A stretch of 40,466 nucleotides of DNA from Methylococcaceae bacterium (GTDB taxonomy: Bacteria; Pseudomonadota; Gammaproteobacteria; Methylococcales; Methylomonadaceae), in the NCBI GenBank assembly GCA_024636875.1, contig JAGXGJ010000001.1:1-40466 (forward strand), written 5' to 3'. The translations under genes were made by a program, and so were the position numbers. The number at the start of each line of letters is the position of its first letter. Positions within the stretch are counted from its first letter, which is position 1. A model generated the notes under the pieces. It saw only the letters and a list, made by a program, of their open reading frames with translations, was not told where the DNA came from and did no database searches. This document shows positions 17,460-26,365 of this stretch, piece by piece.

Positions 17460-17846
17460 ATGGACTATTATGAGACGGACAATGAGTTAACAGGGACGAT
17501 TATAGGCGCTGCCATTGAAGTTCATCGTCATCTGGGGCCTGGATTATTGGAATCCGTGTATGAAGAATGTATGGTCTTTGAATTGGCAGAGCGCGGCTTG
17601 GAAATTCAACGTCAATTACTAATCCCCATCGTTTATAAAGGCAGACAGCTTAAAATCGATTATCGGATCGACCTTTTAGTGAACCAAACAGTTATCATTG
17701 AATTAAAGTCAGTGCAAAAACTGGAAGCTATTCATGAAGCGCAATTGTTAACCTATTTAAAACTGGCAAATAAAAGATTCGGTTTGTTAATGAACTTCAA
17801 TGTACCGATAATGAAACAAGGCATACGCAGACTATTAAACGGCTGA
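17460..17846 (+). CDS. GxxExxY protein (PD-(D/E)xK-like fold family)
   Basis: A 128-residue protein with the family-naming motif GPGLLESVYE (residues about 27-36), preceded by TGTIIGAAIEVHRHL. The core IDYRIDLLVNQTVIIELKSV contains a D...E-x-K arrangement like that of nuclease-fold proteins, and HEAQLLTYLKLANKRFGLLMNF follows. Length agrees with the family (about 125). The family is widespread and its function is not established; a nuclease or recombination-associated role is often suggested from fold. The gene is bracketed by two copies of a long hairpin repeat, suggesting that it and the repeats moved as a unit. No clear RBS is visible before ATG 17460. Confidence 0.88.
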   Translation: MDYYETDNELTGTIIGAAIEVHRHLGPGLLESVYEECMVFELAERGLEIQRQLLIPIVYKGRQLKIDYRIDLLVNQTVIIELKSVQKLEAIHEAQLLTYLKLANKRFGLLMNFNVPIMKQGIRRLLNG

Positions 17847-17858
17847 ATTTTATTATTT

Positions 17859-17927
17859 ACCACAGAGGCACAGAGAACACAGAGATTTTTATTAATCATT
17901 CCTCTGTGTTCTCTGTGTCTCTGTGGT
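17859..17927. repeat. Long hairpin repeat, intact copy 2 (CACAGAG element)
   Basis: A 26-bp left arm at 17859-17884 (begins ACCACAGAGGCACAG) is the reverse complement of 17902-17927 with one mismatch, around a 17-nt AT loop. It sits between the GxxExxY stop and the mod start and could act as a terminator or an RNA stability element as well as a mobile repeat. Confidence 0.92.
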
Positions 17928-17950
17928 GAACCCACAATACGGACAAAAAC

Positions 17951-20806
17951 ATGGCAAAAATTGAAGACGGCAACGGACAGCAATCCGGCAATTACAAACA
18001 CAACCAGGAAGCCGTTCAGCGTCCCGATGCCGGGATTCAACCGGAATTTAACGGGCGCAAGCCGCCTAAAAGCTACCGTTACGATTCCTCGCTGGCGCCA
18101 GAGTTGTGCTGGGATGAAAACGCCGAACGCGAATTTGCCGAATGGTTGTTGAACCTGATTACGGAGGCTGCGGAACAGGGCGAGGCAGAAATCTTTAAAC
18201 AGCCGCAGATTTGGCAAGGCACAGAGGAAAAATTTTCCTCAATCCGTGAATGCGTGGCGCGGCTGAAAAGTCTGACGCAACCGTTTTTAAATTGGGCCGG
18301 CAAGGCCGAACGCCGCGACATCAAAGTGCCGGCCATACCGTTGTTCGTGCATGAACGCCATTCCACCCAAGCCATCTTGAAAACCCTGGAAAGCTACCGC
18401 GCCGCCGGCACGCAACTGGATTTATTCGGCGACCCGGAACTGGACATCAGCGACATGCTGGACGCCTACGAGCACAAAGGCCCGTGGACCAACCGGCTGA
18501 TTCAGGGCGATTCGCTGCAAGTGATGAACTCGCTGCTGGAATACGAAGGCCTGGGCGGCCAGGTGCAAATGATTTATATGGACCCGCCCTATGGTGTGAA
18601 ATTCGGCTCCAACTTTCAGCCCTTTGTGCGCAAGCGCGATGTCAAACACGGCAAAGACGAGGAAATGATCCGCGAGCCGGAAATGGTCAAGGCGTATCGG
18701 GATACCTGGGAATTGGGCTTGCATTCGTATCTGACTTATTTGCGCGACCGTTTATTGCTGGCTAGGGAATTGTTGATTGAAAGCGGCAGTGTGTTTGTGC
18801 AGATTTCAATTGATAACTTTCATCATGTTCGTGAAATTATGGATGAAGTGTTTGAAGCATCTAACTTTATAAGTTTTATAACCTATAGCACAACAGGTGG
18901 ATTCCCTTCAAAAACACTGAGCCGATCAGGAGATTATATCCTTTGGTATTCAAAAAATAAGGAGAAAATCCGTTATAACCAGATTTATACAAAGAAGGAG
19001 TCTCCTATTGGAGATACAAAAAGTAAATATGATCAAGTTGAATTGCCTGATGGTGTTAGACGAGCACTGACTAATGAAGAGAAGAATGGTGATATTACTT
19101 TACCGCAAGGAGCAAAAATATACACTCTTAATGGACTAACCAGTCAAGGTTCTGCAAATAAACCACAGCCTTTGGAATACAATGGTGAAAAATATTTTCC
19201 TGGTTCAAATGCACATTGGAAAGCTAATTATCCAGAGGGCATGGAGAGAATAAAAAAAGCGAATAGAATTCAAAAAGCAAATACTACTATCAGATATATC
19301 AGGTATTTGGACGATTTTTGTGTGCAACCGATTCACAATATATGGGCAAATATTGGAGGGAGCGTTCAAAGCCGTTCAAATCCAAAATTATACGCTGTCC
19401 AAACTGGTAGTTCTCTAATAGAAAGATGTTTACTAATGGTTACCGATCCCGGCGATTTAGTCATGGATCCCACCTGCGGCTCAGGTACGACCGCCTATAT
19501 CGCAGAACAATGGGGCCGCCGCTGGATTACCTGCGACACTTCCCGCGTACCTCTGGCCTTAGCCCGGCAACGCTTGCTGACCGCCACTTTTCCCTGGTAC
19601 GAACTGAAAGAACCATTACGCGGACCCTCCGGCGGTTTTATTTATAAGCGCAAACACAACAAAAAGGGCGAGGAAGTTGGCGGCCTGGTGCCGCGCATTA
19701 CCCTCAAATCCATCGCCAATAACGAAGAACCGGACATGGTCACATTGGTTGATAAACCGGAAATCAACAACAAAATTACCCGCGTCTGCGGAACGTTTAC
19801 TGTAGAAGCGACAATACAGGGTGCGCAGTCGATTGAAGATTACCCTCATACCAACATTGTTGACGAAAGCAGTGTAAAGCCCTCTCCGGAGGGAGAGGGT
19901 TGGGTGAGGGGAAATGAGACCATGGGAAAAAACCTATTTGAATCCCCTCACCCCGGCCCTCTCCCTGGGGGAGAGGGAGTTAAGGAGTCGGCGGTTTATA
20001 ACAATCCCCGCGCCTATCTGGACCGCATGATTGAGGTATTGCGGCAAAGTCTTACCTTGCGCTTGCCGGGCAACAAAAGCCTGCAATTCGACAATGTCCG
20101 CCCGTTGGCGGCAACTGATCATGAATATCTCCATGCCGAAGCCATCGAACAAGACAGTACAAGCAAACGCATAGCCGTGGTGTTCGGTCCGGAAGATGGC
20201 GCAATCAATTCCAACGATGTTCTGGAAGCCTCGCGCGAAGCGTATTATCTGAAATTCGACGCGCTGTATTTTTTCGGCTTTGCAATACAGGCCAAGGCAC
20301 GGGAATTGATCGAAGATCGCGGCAAGTTGAAATTGCCGTGCAGCTATGTCGCCGTCACGCCCGATGTGGTTATGTCGGATTTGTTGAAAACCAGCAAGAC
20401 TTCGGAAATCTTTTCCGTTACCGGTCTGCCGGATATTGAATTTAGCGAAACCGGGCAAAAATTACCCACCGGCGACAAACTCTATCAAGTGACCTTGCTG
20501 GGTCTGGATGTTTTCCGCCCGCACGATCTTGAAACCGAATCGATTGCTGCCGAAAACCTGCCCTGCTGGATGCTGGACACCGACTATAACGGCATGTGTT
20601 TTTGCGCCCGTCAGGTTTTCTTCCCCAAAACCGCCGCCTGGGACAATCTGCAAAAGTCCCTGAAAGGCCGGTTTTCCGATTCAGTCTGGGAGCATCTGGC
20701 CGGCACGACAAGCGAACCGTTTGTGCTGGGCAGCCACAAGCGTATTGCCGTTAAAGTCATCGATGAACGCGGTAATGAGTTGATGGTCATACGGGAGGCG
20801 CGGTGA
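17951..20806 (+). CDS. mod: Type III-like restriction-modification DNA adenine methyltransferase (Mod)
   Basis: A 951-residue enzyme that would methylate N6-adenine in a short recognition site and serve as the specificity subunit for Res. Motif IV (MIYMDPPYG, Asp near residue 211) precedes motif I (MDPTCGSGTT near 506-514), the beta-class order used by type III Mod proteins. The target recognition domain should lie between them, and DNA from about 18780 to 19440 is visibly AT-richer than either side. Residues of about 643-678 (SSVKPSPEGEGWVRG to SPHPGPLPGGEG) are encoded by palindromic repeat DNA inserted in frame. The C-terminal part (PLAATDHEYLHAEAI, DALYFFGFAIQAKA) is typical of the large Mod variants paired with this Res type. 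It is followed by three small genes and res on the same strand. Confidence 0.9.
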   Translation: MAKIEDGNGQQSGNYKHNQEAVQRPDAGIQPEFNGRKPPKSYRYDSSLAPELCWDENAEREFAEWLLNLITEAAEQGEAEIFKQPQIWQGTEEKFSSIRECVARLKSLTQPFLNWAGKAERRDIKVPAIPLFVHERHSTQAILKTLESYRAAGTQLDLFGDPELDISDMLDAYEHKGPWTNRLIQGDSLQVMNSLLEYEGLGGQVQMIYMDPPYGVKFGSNFQPFVRKRDVKHGKDEEMIREPEMVKAYRDTWELGLHSYLTYLRDRLLLARELLIESGSVFVQISIDNFHHVREIMDEVFEASNFISFITYSTTGGFPSKTLSRSGDYILWYSKNKEKIRYNQIYTKKESPIGDTKSKYDQVELPDGVRRALTNEEKNGDITLPQGAKIYTLNGLTSQGSANKPQPLEYNGEKYFPGSNAHWKANYPEGMERIKKANRIQKANTTIRYIRYLDDFCVQPIHNIWANIGGSVQSRSNPKLYAVQTGSSLIERCLLMVTDPGDLVMDPTCGSGTTAYIAEQWGRRWITCDTSRVPLALARQRLLTATFPWYELKEPLRGPSGGFIYKRKHNKKGEEVGGLVPRITLKSIANNEEPDMVTLVDKPEINNKITRVCGTFTVEATIQGAQSIEDYPHTNIVDESSVKPSPEGEGWVRGNETMGKNLFESPHPGPLPGGEGVKESAVYNNPRAYLDRMIEVLRQSLTLRLPGNKSLQFDNVRPLAATDHEYLHAEAIEQDSTSKRIAVVFGPEDGAINSNDVLEASREAYYLKFDALYFFGFAIQAKARELIEDRGKLKLPCSYVAVTPDVVMSDLLKTSKTSEIFSVTGLPDIEFSETGQKLPTGDKLYQVTLLGLDVFRPHDLETESIAAENLPCWMLDTDYNGMCFCARQVFFPKTAAWDNLQKSLKGRFSDSVWEHLAGTTSEPFVLGSHKRIAVKVIDERGNELMVIREAR
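19880..19977. repeat. Pair of inverted palindromic elements inserted in frame within mod
   Basis: CCCTCTCC/GGAGAGGG (19880-19887 / 19892-19899) and CCCTCTCCC/GGGAGAGGG (19957-19965 / 19969-19977) are two palindromes. GGGTGAGGGG (19902-19911) is the exact complement of CCCCTCACCC (19944-19953). So two copies of one repeat face each other and can form a large cruciform. The block reads through without a stop. A further copy lies at 25000-25033 outside genes, so this is a dispersed extragenic-type repeat that has landed in a coding sequence. Confidence 0.92.
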
Positions 20807-20837
20807 TGGCTAACAATGAAACAGTAGGAGGTGAATC

Positions 20838-21068
20838 ATGAGTATTTCTGTTTCTATTGATTTTGCACAATTAAAAAATGCGGTTGCACAATGCAATGCT
20901 GATGAAAAAATGGAGTTATTACGGCTACTGGAAAATGAGACTTTTCCAAGCCGGTTTAGGCAATTTCTGGAACAGGTAAAAACCGATGAATTGAGTCTGG
21001 ATGATATTACTGCAGAAGTCGAGGCCGTCAGGCAAGCAAAATATGTTTTACAATGCAGAGCACGTTAA
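20838..21068 (+). CDS. Small protein in the mod-res interval, antitoxin-like
   Basis: A 76-residue acidic protein with a strong RBS (AGGAGGTGA) just upstream of ATG 20838. It begins MSISVSIDFAQLKNAVAQC and ends in LSLDDITAEVEAVRQAKY, a helical tail like that of short proteins found beside PIN-domain toxins. No catalytic motif is seen. It lies 31 bp after mod. A tiny frame (MANNETVGGES, 20806-20841) overlaps both and could couple translation. An antitoxin or accessory role in the following toxin pair is plausible, but the family is not one I can name. Confidence 0.6.
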   Translation: MSISVSIDFAQLKNAVAQCNADEKMELLRLLENETFPSRFRQFLEQVKTDELSLDDITAEVEAVRQAKYVLQCRAR

Positions 21069-21093
21069 TATCACTATTTTCTGAGGAAAGATT

Positions 21094-21303
21094 ATGTACG
21101 CTTATAAAGAAATTATCACCGTGGACAATCTACAACAATTGACATTAAGTAAACCGTTGCAACTGCCATTAGGCAAAAAAGTCGAGGTTCTAGTCATCGC
21201 TGAAGATGATGGCGAAAACTTGGACGACATACGAAACTATATAAATCAACAGGGCATTACCGAAAGCATGGTCGAAGAAGCTATTGAGTGGGCAAGAAAA
21301 TAA
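21094..21303 (+). CDS. Putative antitoxin partner of the PIN toxin
   Basis: A 69-residue acidic protein with GAGGAAAG about 7 nt before ATG 21094. The N-terminus (ITVDNLQQLTLSKPLQLPLGKKVEVLVIAED) resembles the beta-rich AbrB/VapB-like region and the C-terminus is a helix (NYINQQGITESMVEEAIEWARK) suitable for wrapping a toxin. Its TAA stop shares one base with the toxin ATG (TAATG), the usual coupling in toxin-antitoxin pairs. The call rests mostly on that arrangement. Confidence 0.7.
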   Translation: MYAYKEIITVDNLQQLTLSKPLQLPLGKKVEVLVIAEDDGENLDDIRNYINQQGITESMVEEAIEWARK

Positions 21304-21716
21304 TGCGAGTCGTTTTTGACACGAACACATTAATTTCCGCATTGCTTTTTCGGGGACATTCAAGTTTTTTAGTGCCGTTATGGCAAAACCATGAAATAAC
21401 GGTTTTGGCCAGTCATGATTCGGTAATTGAATTTTTAAGAGTACTCAATTATCCAAAATTTAATCTTTCCAGTTTACAGATAAAGTCTGTCGCTGACGCG
21501 TATTTGCCTTATGTTGTGCTTATCGGTGTAGATAAATCGCAACTGCCCGATGACTTGCCTCAATGCCGCGACATTAAAGACCAGCCATTTATTGATTTGG
21601 CTTATTTTGGAAAAGCTGACGCACTGATAAGTGGCGATTCAGATTTACTAGTTTTAAACGGACAGCTACCTTTTGCTATTGAAACGCCCGCTGCTTTCAA
21701 ACAACGGAACCTATAA
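21303..21716 (+). CDS. PIN-domain toxin (COG1569-type putative ribonuclease)
   Basis: A 137-residue protein from ATG 21303 overlapping the antitoxin stop; an upstream GTG at 21288 is less likely. It has the PIN acidic residues: Asp in MRVVFDTNTLISALLFRG, Glu in SHDSVIEFLRVL, Asp in DIKDQPFIDLAY, and Asp in ADALISGDSDLL. The FDTNTLISALLFRG opening is typical of the 'putative toxin-antitoxin system toxin component, PIN family'. All acidic positions are present, so this copy looks intact, unlike the vapC remnant at 16759. Its position between mod and res could help keep the restriction system from being lost. Confidence 0.85.
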   Translation: MRVVFDTNTLISALLFRGHSSFLVPLWQNHEITVLASHDSVIEFLRVLNYPKFNLSSLQIKSVADAYLPYVVLIGVDKSQLPDDLPQCRDIKDQPFIDLAYFGKADALISGDSDLLVLNGQLPFAIETPAAFKQRNL

Positions 21717-21742
21717 GCTTTATACTGTAAACATTAAACGCT

Positions 21743-24700
21743 ATGTCCAACGAAGTCCAAAACCCGATCATCAATTCGCCGTTTGTCGAGCCGAAACTGC
21801 ATTGGCAAATCGAGCACGGCAAATCACCAGTGAAAGCTGAAGGCCGGCGCCCCGCCAGTTATTATTATCGGGTGCCGGAAAGCGCCGGGCGCGGCCGCAA
21901 AAATAAAAAACAAATGACGCTGCAAGGCGATTTGAATGTCGGCGAACAGGAAGATTTGCCGATTGTAAATTGGCTAAGAATGCGGGTTAAGGAATGGCGC
22001 GCCGGTGTCTTAACCGGTATTCCTTACGATGGCGCATCGCCGGTGACTAAAGAACTGTTGGCTTTGTGGTCCGCCGGCAGCGACAGGCGGCAACAGCGTT
22101 TATATTTTGCCCAGCTTGAAGCTGCGGAAACCCTTATTTTTCTGGTCGAAGCGTCTGAGGTTTACCAGAAAAACAAGCCGCTTATACCACTTGATAAACC
22201 GGGCGATAAAACTCTGGCGAAAGGCTTTAAGGCCTTTACCCGCTATGCCTTGAAAATGGCAACTGGTACCGGTAAAACCACGGTCATGGGCATGTTGTCG
22301 GCGTGGTCGATTTTAAACCGGGTGGCAGCACCGACTGATGATCGATTTTCCGACACGATTTTGATTGTCTGCCCCAATGTCACCATCCGCGAAAGACTAC
22401 AGGAATTAGATCCCGCCTTGGGCGATTTAAGTTTGTACCGCACCCGGCAATTAGTGCCAGTACATCGAATGGAAGAACTCAGGCGCGGCGAAGTCATGAT
22501 TGCCAACTGGCACAAACTGGCCAAAAAGGAAACCAACAGCGTCAATGGGGACTCTGCCAAGGTAGTCAAAACCGGAGAAGCAACTGAAGTTGTGATGAAT
22601 GCCGGACGCACAGACGAACGTATTGAAACCAGGTACTTTGAATCAGACAGAGCCTGGTTTAAACGTATTCGTCAGGAATTAGGTTCCGCTAAAGGCCGCA
22701 CACCGCATTGGCTAATATTTAATGACGAAGCGCATCATGCCTATCGTCGCGGCGACAACAACGGCAATAACATTGTTGATTTGGAAGAAGATGCTTCGCT
22801 TGCTAAAAAGAATGCCAGGGAAGCGACAATCTGGATTGAAGGCCTGGATCGAATCAACAAGTTGGCTGGCGACCGTAAAAAGGGTATTGGTCTTTGCGTT
22901 GATCTCTCCGCTACACCCTTTTATATTCAGGGCTCAGGCAATGAAGTCGGCAAGCCGTTTCCGTGGGTCGTTTCGGATTTTGGTCTGCTGGATGCTATTG
23001 AATCCGGCTTGGTGAAAATTCCGCAGTTGCCGACGCGCGATATTACCGGCGCCAATGAAGCGACTTATTTTAATGTCTGGCGCTGGGTGGAGGACATGGC
23101 CGAAAAAGACGGCCACAGTAAAATCAATCCTCAAATAGTGATGACCTACGCCTCGGCACCGATTACAACGCTGGCTCAAGATTGGCATGAACGGTTTTTA
23201 CAATGGCAACAAGACAGTCAGGGCGAATTGCACCCAGTACCTCCAGTGTTTATCATCGTATGCCGCGATACCAAAGTGGCAGCGGAGGTTTATAACTGGT
23301 TGGCTTACAATGAAGGCGGTTATGGTACTGCACCCACCTGGTTTAGCAATCAACCGGGTGAAGAAGTTACGGTACGAGTGGATTCCAAAGTCGTTGAGGA
23401 TATGGAAGAAGGCGGCACCAAGGATGAAACCAAACGCTTACGCTTTATTCTGGATACGATTGGCAAGAAAACGTGGCTGGGTGGCAAGGTTCCGGAGGAA
23501 TGGTCTGAATTGGTCCGCAAAAATAACGACAAAGCTGCCAGCGATGACAATGACGGTAGTTACAAGTGGATGGATGAGCGTATACCGCCTGGACGTAATA
23601 TCCGCTGCATTATTTCTGTGGCGATGCTGGCGGAGGGCTGGGATGCCAATACGGTTACGCATATTGTCGGCTTGCGTCCGTTTGGCTCCCAGTTATTGTG
23701 TGAACAAGTCGTTGGCCGTGCCCTTCGCCGTCGCAGTTACGCTTTGAATGAAGAGACTGGTCAATTCGAGGAAGAAACAGCGAAAGTATTTGGCGTTCCT
23801 TTTGAATTGGTACCGTTTAAAGTTTCTCAAGGGAAAGATAAACCACCGCCAAAAGAGCCGCATCATATTTTCAGCGATACTGAAAAAGCCCAATTTGCAA
23901 TCAGCTTTCCTATTGTTGAAGGCTATTTCAGTCCGCAAACATTTGAAGTCAATATTGTTTGGAATCAGGTTGCACAGGTAACGATTGATCCCAAAGAAAT
24001 TCCTAATCAAATAGAACTGAATTCGCTAACTTCTTTTGATGGTACGTTGGCTAAATATGGGCCGGGGCAAAGACCTATCCTTACGCTTACAGAGTGGCGC
24101 AAACAATTCCGTTTGCAACAAGTGGCATTTAGTCTCGCCAGGGAGGTTTGTAAACGCTGGGAGTCTGAACAAGGTTCTTTTGAGAAGAGTGATTCAACCA
24201 TTACTCCGCAAGTGTTGTTTCCTAAAGTGGCTTATGCCGCTAAACGGTTTTTATTGGAAAAAATTAAATGCGAGGGCACAGCGCAACCGTGCGATGTGTT
24301 GTTGGTGGGGAAATATCAGCAAGCTGCTGTGAATTCGTTGTATGAAGCCATTCGTAAGGGGGGAGTTTGTGGAAGAAACCTGGAGTTGCCTCGCATCGCA
24401 AAAGGCGCCGCTGGCCGGGGTAGTACGGAATACGTTGATTATCATACGACCAAGGATGTCTATCCGGTAACCAAGAGCCATTTAAACCTGATGGCGGCGG
24501 ATACCAAAAAATGGGAACAAAGTGCCGGCTTTGCACTGGATGCTCATCCTGGTGTGATCAAGTGGGTTAAAAATGAACATTTGGGGTTCTCTATTCCATA
24601 TAGAAAAAGTGGTGTGCCATCCACATACATTCCGGACTTTATTGCCGAACTGGATATAGGCTTGAATTTGATCATCGAAACCAAAGGCCAGTACAACGAC

Positions 24701-24874
24701 AATGCCGATATAAAAGCGAAAGCAGCCGAGCGTTGGGTTAATGCGGTTAACGAAGCTGGAAATTCAGGCTTGTGGCAATATGTGGTGGTTAAAGACCCGG
24801 CTGCCTTGCCGAATATCTTGAACCAGTATTGCGCTACAAAATGGGATGTCAGTGATCTTGAATTTGGGACGTAG
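21743..24874 (+). CDS. res: Type III-like restriction endonuclease subunit (Res), BPTD_3080-type
   Basis: A 1043-residue ATP-dependent helicase-nuclease working with Mod. Helicase motifs are in order: Walker A in LKMATGTGKTTVMG near residue 174, DEAH box in IFNDEAHHAYRRG near 328, LSATPFYIQGSG near 390, and motif VI QVVGRALRRRSY near 655. The C-terminal nuclease domain has the PD-(D/E)xK pattern in IPDFIAEL (about 962) and LIIETKGQ (about 977). It starts 26 bp after the PIN toxin gene with no strong RBS. The enzyme would translocate on DNA and cut sites left unmethylated. No inactivating change is seen. Confidence 0.9.
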   Translation: MSNEVQNPIINSPFVEPKLHWQIEHGKSPVKAEGRRPASYYYRVPESAGRGRKNKKQMTLQGDLNVGEQEDLPIVNWLRMRVKEWRAGVLTGIPYDGASPVTKELLALWSAGSDRRQQRLYFAQLEAAETLIFLVEASEVYQKNKPLIPLDKPGDKTLAKGFKAFTRYALKMATGTGKTTVMGMLSAWSILNRVAAPTDDRFSDTILIVCPNVTIRERLQELDPALGDLSLYRTRQLVPVHRMEELRRGEVMIANWHKLAKKETNSVNGDSAKVVKTGEATEVVMNAGRTDERIETRYFESDRAWFKRIRQELGSAKGRTPHWLIFNDEAHHAYRRGDNNGNNIVDLEEDASLAKKNAREATIWIEGLDRINKLAGDRKKGIGLCVDLSATPFYIQGSGNEVGKPFPWVVSDFGLLDAIESGLVKIPQLPTRDITGANEATYFNVWRWVEDMAEKDGHSKINPQIVMTYASAPITTLAQDWHERFLQWQQDSQGELHPVPPVFIIVCRDTKVAAEVYNWLAYNEGGYGTAPTWFSNQPGEEVTVRVDSKVVEDMEEGGTKDETKRLRFILDTIGKKTWLGGKVPEEWSELVRKNNDKAASDDNDGSYKWMDERIPPGRNIRCIISVAMLAEGWDANTVTHIVGLRPFGSQLLCEQVVGRALRRRSYALNEETGQFEEETAKVFGVPFELVPFKVSQGKDKPPPKEPHHIFSDTEKAQFAISFPIVEGYFSPQTFEVNIVWNQVAQVTIDPKEIPNQIELNSLTSFDGTLAKYGPGQRPILTLTEWRKQFRLQQVAFSLAREVCKRWESEQGSFEKSDSTITPQVLFPKVAYAAKRFLLEKIKCEGTAQPCDVLLVGKYQQAAVNSLYEAIRKGGVCGRNLELPRIAKGAAGRGSTEYVDYHTTKDVYPVTKSHLNLMAADTKKWEQSAGFALDAHPGVIKWVKNEHLGFSIPYRKSGVPSTYIPDFIAELDIGLNLIIETKGQYNDNADIKAKAAERWVNAVNEAGNSGLWQYVVVKDPAALPNILNQYCATKWDVSDLEFGT

Positions 24875-24975
24875 GGATTTATTTTGCATATCAAAATCAA
24901 CAAGAACAAAAGTGTAAAATTTTCTGACAGTTATGGAAATCAAGACCTTTTTGTCAGACAGGTATAGGAGCCAAA

Positions 24976-25054
24976 GTTGGTAAAGCGACCTTTGTAATAC
25001 CCTCACCCTAACCCTCTCCCAAAGGGAGAGGGGTCTTTGTGTCGCTTTACCAAC
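24976..25054. repeat. Nested palindromic element after res
   Basis: GTTGGTAAAGCGAC (24976-24989) is perfectly inverted at 25041-25054 and the similarity continues imperfectly outward (TAGGAGCCAAA against TAGAGTCCGAC). Inside lies CCCTCACCCTAACCCTCTCCC with the CCCTCTCCC/GGGAGAGGG palindrome (25012-25020 / 25024-25032), the same core repeat found inside mod. One repeat appears nested in another. It may also terminate the res transcript. Confidence 0.9.
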
Positions 25055-25083
25055 GTCGGACTCTATAATTAGTATTTAAATTT

Positions 25084-25100
25084 CATGGGGATACCCCATG
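25084..25100. other. Short palindrome upstream of the transglycosylase gene
   Basis: CATGGGG and CCCCATG flank ATA. It could be an operator or an RNA hairpin in the leader of the next gene, and includes an alternative ATG for it. Confidence 0.4.
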
Positions 25101-25162
25101 GATCATCCCTTATTTTACGAAACAACACCCAGTCAAAAGACAAGATTGATAATTATTGCCCG

Positions 25163-26365
25163 ATGAAAAAGCCTGTAATTCCACTCGATCCAGCGAAAGT
25201 CAAACCTGAGCCTAAGTCTGTTTCTAAACCTGAGCCTGAGCCTAAGCCTAAGCCTAAGTCTGTTTCTAAACCTGAGCCTAAGCCTAAACCTGAGCCTAAG
25301 CCTAAGTCTGTTTCTAAACCTAAACCCAGAACTCCCCGTGCAACAAGGCAAGGCTCAAAACAAGCGCTAGCCAGACCGCCAGTAAGAAATTTCAGGCGCA
25401 GACTTTTGTTAATCAGCCTTGAAGTGTCAGGCCTGGTTATTACTGCTGTTTCTGCAATCATGGTTCTTTTAGGTTATTCGGCTGACCGGTTTTCCGGCAC
25501 CCGTTTCTTTACCAGTTTGCTGCCTTTTGCAATCGGTATTTTGGGCTTGATACTGGCGGCTGCCGTGTTGCTAATTGGCTGGTGGAAGCTTCGAAAATGG
25601 TCGCAGGGCAGGGCATCGCTGTTGGCCCCAATGCTGTCTATCAGCCTTGCGCTGGTGATTGGCTGGCTTGTCATGCAGGATCAATTCGTCCTTGCGTTCG
25701 GACACTTTCGCACGCTGGTCGGCGGCAAGCAGGAAGCCAGCAGGGTTACATTAGCTCATCAGGTCTACGCAGCTTATCGCCGCCACGATCCGGCACAACT
25801 GCAAAAGCTGGTTAATCGCGCGCAGGGCTATAATAATGTTATCGAGGAGGCGGCTGAAGTATTCGATATCGATACTAACCTGCTGCAAGGCGTTGCCGCG
25901 GCAGAGTCTTCCTTTTTGCCTCGCGATAGCAAGGATGGCGGACACGGCCTGTTTCAAATCACGCTTGTGCCAAAAGTCGTAATGGAGCAGGCCGTCACGC
26001 ATTTGAAGGTGGCAAAGGCTTCATTGCTCAATCCGCGGCACAATGCGTTCATAGCGGCTGCCACGTTAAAATATTATCTGGACGAGATGAATAATGATTT
26101 GTTTCTGGGCTTGCTGGCTTATAACATCGGGCCCGCTAACGGAGGCCTTCGATTTATCATGCAGCAATATGGAGCGACAGATTTTGTCACGATACAACCT
26201 TATTTACAGCGACTGCCGCGTGATTATCCAATTCGTGTTTTATCCTACTCACTGGCGTTCAGACTCTGGGAAAAAGAAGGAAAACTGCTTGCTTATGAAG
26301 AAGGAAAAAATGCCATACATATCCAGCGCATCGGGATACCAGGCTTGCAAATGGACTTTTTTTAA
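25163..26365 (+). CDS. Membrane-anchored lytic transglycosylase (SLT domain) with KPEP-repeat linker
   Basis: A 400-residue protein from ATG 25163; an ATG at 25085 would add 26 residues and neither has a clear RBS. Residues of about 10-60 are a proline-lysine-glutamate repeat (KPEPKSVSKPEP units). Three hydrophobic segments follow at about 80-105, 115-140 and 155-175 (VSGLVITAVSAIMVLLGYS, FAIGILGLILAAAVLLIGWW, SISLALVIGWLVM). The C-terminal SLT domain carries the catalytic Glu in AAAESSFLPRDSKDGGHGLFQIT near residue 247 and LGLLAYNIGPANGG. It should cleave peptidoglycan in the periplasm while tethered to the inner membrane. The repeat N-terminus is encoded by near-perfect 6-bp repeats and is presumably cytoplasmic. 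Confidence 0.82.
   Translation: MKKPVIPLDPAKVKPEPKSVSKPEPEPKPKPKSVSKPEPKPKPEPKPKSVSKPKPRTPRATRQGSKQALARPPVRNFRRRLLLISLEVSGLVITAVSAIMVLLGYSADRFSGTRFFTSLLPFAIGILGLILAAAVLLIGWWKLRKWSQGRASLLAPMLSISLALVIGWLVMQDQFVLAFGHFRTLVGGKQEASRVTLAHQVYAAYRRHDPAQLQKLVNRAQGYNNVIEEAAEVFDIDTNLLQGVAAAESSFLPRDSKDGGHGLFQITLVPKVVMEQAVTHLKVAKASLLNPRHNAFIAAATLKYYLDEMNNDLFLGLLAYNIGPANGGLRFIMQQYGATDFVTIQPYLQRLPRDYPIRVLSYSLAFRLWEKEGKLLAYEEGKNAIHIQRIGIPGLQMDFF
25202..25328. repeat. Hexanucleotide-based coding repeat (CCTGAG/CCTAAG)
   Basis: CCTAAG and CCTGAG hexamers alternate with three copies of the longer spacer AAGTCTGTTTCTAAACCT, giving Lys-Pro-Glu-Pro and KSVSKP units. Because the units are six or multiples of six bases, changes in copy number keep the frame, so length is likely variable between strains. 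Confidence 0.9.

What the first reader, a model, noticed from the sequence alone, without database searches (positions are those of the whole stretch)
19877..19982. Dispersed palindromic repeat inserted in frame in the mod gene
About 100 bp of mod consist of two oppositely oriented copies of a CCCTCTCC-type palindrome with complementary GGGTGAGGGG arms, encoding SPEGEGWVRG...SPHPGPLPGGEG. The same core lies in the intergenic DNA after res (25000-25033). These elements are normally extragenic; here the reading frame stays open through both, adding a Pro/Gly-rich loop to the methyltransferase. Either the enzyme tolerates the insert in a surface loop, or the repeat is being domesticated as protein sequence.
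Basis: partly seen in the sequence, partly recalled or inferred. Interest (0 to 1): 0.72.

Follow-up and report, generated by a model that had tools for sequence, protein, structure and literature searches.

The report
In-frame mobile repeat in methyltransferase gene
A short palindromic mobile DNA element has landed inside a bacterial DNA-methylating enzyme gene without breaking its reading frame, adding about 44 amino acids to a loose linker, much like the 'selfish' protein-coding repeats known from Rickettsia.

Summary
The mod insert (19852 to about 19983; 132 nt, 44 codons) is a truncated copy of a ~152-bp MITE-like element dispersed in related genomes. The element has terminal inverted repeats, 10-12-bp flanking duplications at 6 of 12 testable copies, and two inverted G/C-rich triplex motifs (TM; published, always intergenic in E. 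coli MG1655). The mod copy keeps the left terminal repeat and both TMs but no right repeat. Of 42 copies examined, 14 lie inside long ORFs, all sense and in the same frame (HsdM, a type IIG-like methylase, SMC, RecD, topoisomerase I and others). In Mod it fills a hypervariable linker that is coil in a weak structure model; the closest homologues lack it. TMs also sit in frame in Mod homologues of several phyla (20 of 116 Mod ORFs, two doubtful; 0 of 69 Res ORFs), in loops that accept insertions. Loop tolerance accounts for most of that contrast. Best reading: a protein-compatible MITE, working like a Rickettsia palindromic element, carried as a passenger by an apparently functional methyltransferase. 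Domestication and phase switching are not shown. New variant of a known kind.

The parts
17951..20806 (+). mod: type III-like N6/N4 DNA methyltransferase, 951 aa, carrying the insert; DPPYG at residue 211, DPTCGSGTT at 506
19852..19983 (+). the insert: truncated copy of a ~152-bp MITE-like element, 132 nt / 44 codons; the right boundary is approximate
19852..19869 (+). left terminal inverted repeat, CAACATTGTTGACGAAAG (common form in other copies CAATACTGTTGACTTAAG)
19880..19911 (+). TM copy 1: type A-like triplex motif with two 1-nt losses against the published consensus
19912..19943 (+). spacer between the two TMs
19944..19977 (-). TM copy 2, inverted: exact fit to the published type B triplex motif on the - strand
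21743..24874 (+). res: partner restriction enzyme of the BPTD_3080 family, full length, GTGKT and DEAH motifs present
24963..25067 (.). a different 105-bp MITE with TATAGGAG..ACTCTATA ends and a single TM core at 25000-25033

Best explanation
The insert is a copy of a non-autonomous mobile element (about 152 bp: terminal inverted repeats plus two inverted triplex-type palindromes) that moved into the linker of a type III-like mod gene and has lost, or never had, its right end there. The element usually has one stop-free frame, so an insertion in that phase lengthens the host protein instead of ending it. The catalytic core and the C-terminal domain remain intact, so the insert stays as a tolerated passenger, and inside a gene it can be lost only by an in-frame deletion, which prolongs its stay. 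Shown: element identity, left boundary, dispersal, flanking duplications at some intact copies, in-frame state, extra-segment status. Inferred: mobilisation in trans by a transposase not found here, continued enzyme activity, neutrality, and the retention effect.
For: 28 listed places besides the window, of at least 100 bases at 80-86% identity, share the unit (only about four candidates per genome were scored). Terminal repeats and layout. Flanking direct repeats of 10-12 bp with at most one mismatch at 6 of 12 testable copies, 0 of 204 mismatched pairs reaching the same score. 14 of 42 copies in long ORFs, all sense and in one frame, in hosts with full Pfam domains. Host linker variable: occupancy 0.10-0.21 at residues 641-680; homologues L010 and L109 have a linker about 40 residues shorter. 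Coil from 613 to 685 in the model. Mod under purifying selection against L039 (dN/dS 0.12, 0.10, 0.19); catalytic motifs and Res intact.
Against: The window copy has no right repeat and no recognisable target duplication, so its own insertion event is inferred from relatives. 5 of 12 testable copies show no convincing duplication and one is ambiguous. No transposase with these terminal repeats was found. The model is weak (mean pLDDT 63.9, some core stretches below 50). No uninserted allele of the same species was seen. Synonymous sites between mod and L039 are strongly diverged (dS 0.6-1.2), so recent loss of function would not show.
Confidence: 0.8

Rival explanations
1. Domestication: the TM-encoded Pro/Gly/Glu-rich peptide has become a functional spacer of Mod and is kept for its sequence.
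For: TMs recur in frame in the same loops of Mod homologues of several phyla. Both Mods of the own genome carry them, and the second is shared with a same-genus genome.
Against: Inserts in HsdM and SMC change amino acids no less than their flanks (pN 0.026 against 0.016; dN 0.066 against 0.043). Most Mod homologues have other or no sequence there. One stop-free frame is enough to explain the shared frame.
Confidence: 0.08
2. Disabling insert: Mod is inactive or impaired and the locus is on its way out.
For: Insertion of 44 residues; some Mod homologues are frameshifted (10 junctions found).
Against: Frame open, catalytic motifs present, Res full length, and a linker where homologues vary widely in length. 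Loss of Mod with Res active would be expected to kill the cell (established knowledge of R-M systems, not tested).
Confidence: 0.06
3. Contingency locus: unstable TMs inside mod switch the frame and make a phase-variable methyltransferase.
For: The TM is linked to genome instability in E. coli (PMC4666352 abstract). 2 of 10 Mod frame changes have TMs in the gap (L023, L025).
Against: In L023 the frame change lies beside a 155-nt missing stretch about 0.43 kb from the TMs, and the difference next to the TM is net in frame. L025 was not examined further. The coding TMs seen are in frame.
Confidence: 0.03
4. Assembly artefact: the repeat was wrongly joined into mod.
For: The assembly is in 183 contigs and 77% complete, with 164 exact heads.
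Against: The copy is at most 86% identical to any other long copy listed, the left flank and the sequence after it align to homologues, and the frame is open.
Confidence: 0.02

Closest known systems
Rickettsia palindromic elements (RPE; Ogata et al. 2000 and 2002, seen only as cited in PMC10969869)
   Same: ~150-bp dispersed palindrome, stop-free frame with a conserved peptide, in-frame fusions with unrelated genes
   Different: Different clade; built on a triplex-motif doublet; MITE terminal repeats and flanking duplications shown here. Sequence similarity to RPE families was not tested
G/C-rich intrastrand triplex motif TM_ECO (Holder et al. 2015, PMC4666352)
   Same: Copy 2 fits the consensus exactly (type B); inverted A + B pairing as reported for E. 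coli
   Different: Inside a coding sequence and part of a larger mobile element; copy 1 departs from the consensus; E. coli MG1655 copies are reported as always intergenic and not associated with mobile elements
REP / REPIN with RAYT transposase, including intragenic GTAG and CGTC REPs (PMC3733652)
   Same: Inverted pairs of short palindromes; in-frame copies reported in genes, many of them for DNA synthesis and repair
   Different: No TM head in the six own-genome Y1_Tnp loci held; intact copies have long terminal repeats and 10-12-bp duplications; no GTAG tag seen at the ends
Phase-variable mod genes (phasevarions)
   Same: Repeat DNA inside a mod gene
   Different: No ON/OFF variants seen, and the in-frame element is not a simple sequence repeat

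Membership tests
MITE | Short (<200 bp), no transposase gene, terminal inverted repeats | tested here: met
   Intact relatives 149-153 bp with inverted ends; the window copy keeps only the left end
MITE | Target-site duplication | tested here: inconclusive
   10-12 bp at 6 of 12 testable copies, one ambiguous, five without; 0 of 204 control pairs. None recognisable at the window copy
MITE | Related autonomous transposon | tested here: inconclusive
   Terminal-repeat pattern in 9 genomes: no inward-facing pair 1-2.5 kb apart among the listed places, read by eye
Rickettsia palindromic element-like | In-frame insertions in unrelated genes with a shared encoded peptide | tested here: met
   14 of 42 copies in long ORFs, same strand and frame; 11 different kinds of host gene (and the window Mod)
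Rickettsia palindromic element (as a sequence family) | Sequence similarity to RPE families | not tested
   No RPE sequence was fetched or compared
Triplex motif TM_ECO | CCCTCNCCC N3-6 GGGNGAGGG N3 GGGNGAGGG | tested here: met
   Copy 2 fits exactly on the - strand. Copy 1 does not: one C short in the first stem and a 2-nt second loop
Triplex motif TM_ECO | Forms a triplex in vitro or in vivo | not testable with these tools
   Reported for E. coli sequences in PMC4666352
REP/REPIN-RAYT | Association with a RAYT (Y1_Tnp) gene | tested here: inconclusive
   Six Y1_Tnp matches in the own genome, no TM head in the six loci held (1.6-3.3 kb); but a 105-bp MITE lies about 1.9 kb from the Y1_Tnp match on contig C79
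Type III restriction-modification (BPTD_3080 type) | Adjacent mod and res with family profiles and motifs | tested here: met
   Mod: PF01555, PADLOC MTase_III 510 bits. Res: NF046055 1134 bits (cut-off 800) but only weak PADLOC REase_III hits
Phase-variable mod | Reversible ON/OFF frame switching at the repeat | tested here: inconclusive
   2 of 10 frame changes have TMs in the gap; the one followed up is not at the TM. No population data

The most novel reading that the evidence does not exclude
Triplex-type palindromic MITEs are a widespread source of protein sequence. They end up in long DNA-acting enzymes, above all DNA methyltransferases of several R-M types, more often than loop tolerance predicts, and their matching DNA then promotes recombination that spreads inserts and neighbouring domains between species.
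Probability: 0.15. Interest if true: 0.78.

Novelty: new variant of a known kind. Interest (0 to 1): 0.55.

Why it matters
Protein-compatible palindromic elements are best known from Rickettsia, with further cases among REPs. This is a well-bounded, apparently unrelated case in genomes related to methane-oxidising bacteria (inferred), with 14 in-frame copies in 11 kinds of gene. It links a puzzling triplex motif, reported as intergenic in E. coli, to transposable units and to coding DNA, and it supplies inserted and uninserted versions of the same enzymes for testing how often selfish DNA becomes protein.

Tried and rejected
Specific targeting of Mod: suggested by 20 of 116 Mod against 0 of 69 Res ORFs, then weakened because Mod loops proved far richer in long insertions than Res. 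Phase variation: frameshifts checked and one followed up; not supported. RAYT mobilisation: no TM head in the six Y1_Tnp loci held, not excluded. Autonomous parent transposon: not found in 9 genomes. RNA family: no Rfam match at the gathering threshold in 17500-25500. Movement from gene to gene: the GACGAAAGC variant is shared by the Mod and one SMC copy, which group with 0.85 support; too weak to claim.

Literature: eight searches. Among the titles and abstract openings listed I saw no paper on this 152-bp element or on TMs inside mod genes; only the top listings were seen, and most subscription papers and preprints are not held. Papers: PMC4666352 abstract, two sections and passages; PMC3733652 passages and one section; PMC10969869 passages; PMC186582 not held.

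Data caveats: one search used six peptide stretches, one of which (GNETMGKN) is encoded by the insert; 80 of 95 confirmed loci were kept. Of the 20 TM-bearing Mod ORFs, L084 looks spurious and L072 is a weak variant; Mod ORFs include fragments. One search scored 20 own-genome regions picked from the 100 places listed of 147, favouring clustered copies; two further heads near edges were dropped. The same call found 47 ORFs of 120 aa or more with embedded heads in all sampled genomes; I gave 38 of the 47 to, 40 and 10 of those 38, and some may be spurious ORFs. The 42 copies come from 42 loci (22 returned and 20 stretches chosen from its listing); two of these loci held only short matches and two held two copies; the window copy is one of the 42. 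One search's 26 genomes are those for which one search returned Mod loci L009-L034, out of 118 with a match; sizes are rounded by the tool.

Full report
What is there. The mod ORF (17951-20806, 951 aa) contains two inverted copies of a CCCTCTCC..GGGAGAGGG hairpin with complementary GGGTGAGGGG tails. The own genome (3.19 Mb in 183 contigs, 77% complete) has 147 copies of CCCTCNCCCNRNCCCTCTCC against 0 of the reversed control and 164 hairpin heads against 0. Heads occur in 105 of 200 genomes in the relatives search. The closest named Mod in the collection is from a Methylococcales bacterium MAG (L039, 77% identity in its best segment), so 'Methylococcales' is an inference.

The motif is known. 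It fits the G/C-rich intrastrand triplex motif of Holder et al. 2015 (PMC4666352; abstract, two sections and passages seen). That paper gives CCCTCNCCCN3-6GGGNGAGGGN3GGGNGAGGG and reports 23 copies in E. coli MG1655, always intergenic, with five inverted pairs, each combining type A (TTA) with type B (CCG). Copy 2 in mod, read on the - strand, is an exact type B. Copy 1 is type A-like, one C short in the first stem and with a 2-nt second loop.

The insert is part of a larger mobile element. Window 19850-19990 matched 89 of 200 genomes; many matches are single TMs, but 28 listed places besides the window cover at least 100 bases at 80-86% (about four candidates per genome were scored, so this is a lower bound). 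Aligned copies show a unit of terminal inverted repeat CAATACTGTTGACTTAAG, TM, spacer, inverted TM, and CTTAAGTCAACAGTATTG. Eleven intact copies span 149-153 bp. Of 12 copies with both ends testable, six (L209, L211, L212, L213, L220, L248) have 10-12-bp flanking direct repeats with at most one mismatch, one (L245) is ambiguous because its repeat is TM sequence, and five (L242, L247, L250, L252, L254) show none convincing; 0 of 204 mismatched flank pairs reach the same score. The mod copy has the left repeat (19852-19869) and both TMs but no right repeat. Host-like sequence resumes near 19984, where L039 aligns again (ESAVY against EAKAVY). The net insert, about 132 nt, is 44 codons.

It is compatible with protein. 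Of 42 copies matched over at least 80 nt, 14 lie inside long ORFs with at least 40 codons on each side. All 14 are sense and in one frame, with peptides like KPSPEGEGWVRGN...LFxSPHPxLLPxGEG, one of them (L219) cut after the first TM. The element's stops explain this: that frame is open in 4 of 4 intact genic copies and 2 of 7 intact intergenic copies, while the other five frames are open in 2 of 55 cases. Hosts by Pfam: the window Mod, HsdM (two genomes), an Eco57I/TaqI_C methylase, the SMC hinge (three genomes), RecD, topoisomerase I, an NRPS, a PKS, CobN, an AIRS_C protein and a nitrogenase-type protein. That is 4 of 14 copies in DNA methyltransferases and 9 of 14 in DNA-acting proteins; the 14 include the window copy, and orthologous insertions count more than once.

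Effect on Mod. Residues 641-680 are occupied in 10% and 21% (two 20-residue blocks) of 54 aligned sequences. The AlphaFold model (mean pLDDT 63.9; weak, with some core stretches below 50) has no helix or strand between 613 and 685, between the methyltransferase core and the C-terminal domain. Catalytic motifs are intact. Comparison with L039 gives dN/dS 0.19, 0.12 and 0.10 in three parts, at dS 0.6-1.2. The partner Res matches its family over almost its whole length and keeps its helicase motifs. I infer an active enzyme; activity was not tested.

Mod as a collecting place. The second Mod of the same genome (G000:C71, ORF 1062 aa) also carries two in-frame TMs; among 51 scored heads in 20 sampled own-genome regions these two were the only ones embedded in an ORF. 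Across 110 loci, TMs occur in 20 of 116 Mod ORFs (two doubtful), 0 of 69 Res ORFs, 2 of 191 other ORFs (weak matches), and 3 heads in 190 kb of remaining DNA (one-sided Fisher p 4.5e-5 for Mod against Res). They sit in a few loops of the reference numbering, about 77-88, 147-155, 630-676, 736 and 837-842. The named carriers are Nitrospira and other Nitrospirota, beta- and deltaproteobacterial, Burkholderiales and Planctomycetales genomes (titles). For the 26 genomes whose Mods one search returned as loci, plus the second own Mod, 12 exact heads were seen where 0.43 were expected from genome-wide density; heads within one gene are not independent, and by genome it is 5 of 26.

Why Mod and not Res. 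Mod has 69 row-insertions of at least 15 aa in 72 rows, Res 6 in 49 rows. TM peptide signatures are in 11 of the 89 Mod insertions of at least 8 aa; at that rate Res would be expected to show about one to three, and it shows none. So loop tolerance accounts for most of the Mod/Res contrast. It does not by itself explain why TMs are denser in Mod than in the surrounding non-ORF DNA; longer retention inside genes is one possible reason (inference). Mod is not an exclusive host: among 38 ORFs with embedded TMs from eight genomes, Pfam finds N6_N4 methylases (4), DUF559 (3), HsdM-type methylases (2), HsdR (2), class I aminoacyl-tRNA synthetases (2), and single cases such as RecC, DNA polymerase III alpha, SMC, Lhr-type helicase and asparagine synthase. 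In plasmid records, 9 of 60 listed places fall on annotated features, two of them DNA methyltransferases (one a BREX PglX); 48 have none, 3 records are unannotated, and that gene table is incomplete.

Alternatives. Frame switching: of 10 Mod frame changes, two have TMs in the gap. In the same-genus genome the change lies beside a 155-nt missing stretch about 0.43 kb from the TMs; a second difference next to the TM is net in frame. The other case (L025) was not followed up. RAYT: no TM head in the six Y1_Tnp loci held, although a 105-bp MITE lies about 1.9 kb from one Y1_Tnp match. Domestication: inserts in HsdM and SMC change amino acids no less than their flanks. Unexpectedly, synonymous divergence of HsdM between two genomes drops to 1 of 34 sites in the insert against 93.5 of 370 in the flanks (p 0.001), with lower values on both sides; this fits spread of the insert by recombination. 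The SMC pair shows a weaker, non-significant dip (p 0.07).

Comparison with the known. [quoted passage not shown] Intragenic REPs, many in genes for DNA synthesis and repair, are in PMC3733652. This element works like an RPE, but it has MITE features and a triplex-motif core, and its sequence was not compared with RPEs. The listings of eight literature searches showed no paper on it.

Verdict. Observation confirmed and extended. 'Tolerated insert' is supported; 'domesticated' is not shown. New variant of a known kind.

Noticed in passing
24963-25067: The intergenic repeat after res is a 105-bp MITE with TATAGGAG..ACTCTATA ends; the 13 other own-genome hits scored are 97-99% identical and nearly all copies found are exactly 105 bp, so the family looks recently amplified.
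   Followed up: partly
L242 140-1918 and L247 1186-2973 (HsdM in G017 and G043): Synonymous divergence dips to 0.03 in the insert against 0.25 in the flanks, with lower values on both sides, as if the inserted allele spread by recombination.
   Followed up: partly
L018 1331-4246 (G135; also L155 2002-6690): A Mod ORF (1563 aa in L155) packed with TMs, including TM-derived tandem repeats with 33- and 36-bp periods, multiples of three.
   Followed up: no
L135 3535-6720 (G000:C71) and L023 (G002): Second Mod of the own genome with two in-frame TMs, and its same-genus counterpart, which shares TMs but has a frame change beside a 155-nt missing stretch.
   Followed up: partly
L154 1946-7495 (G135:C4): Another TM-rich spot in and beside an N6_N4 methyltransferase gene and a 1089-aa ORF without a Pfam match.
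   Followed up: no
21094-21716: Between mod and res, a 69-aa ORF followed by a PIN_3-domain protein, which looks like a toxin-antitoxin pair (the pairing is inferred).
   Followed up: no
17460-17846 and 17856-17930: A PDDEXK_3 nuclease-family ORF upstream of mod, followed by a 29-nt inverted repeat, 93% complementary.
   Followed up: no
25202-25347: Degenerate AAGCCTAAGCCTGAG-type tandem repeat inside ORF 25085-26365, which matches Pfam SLT.
   Followed up: no
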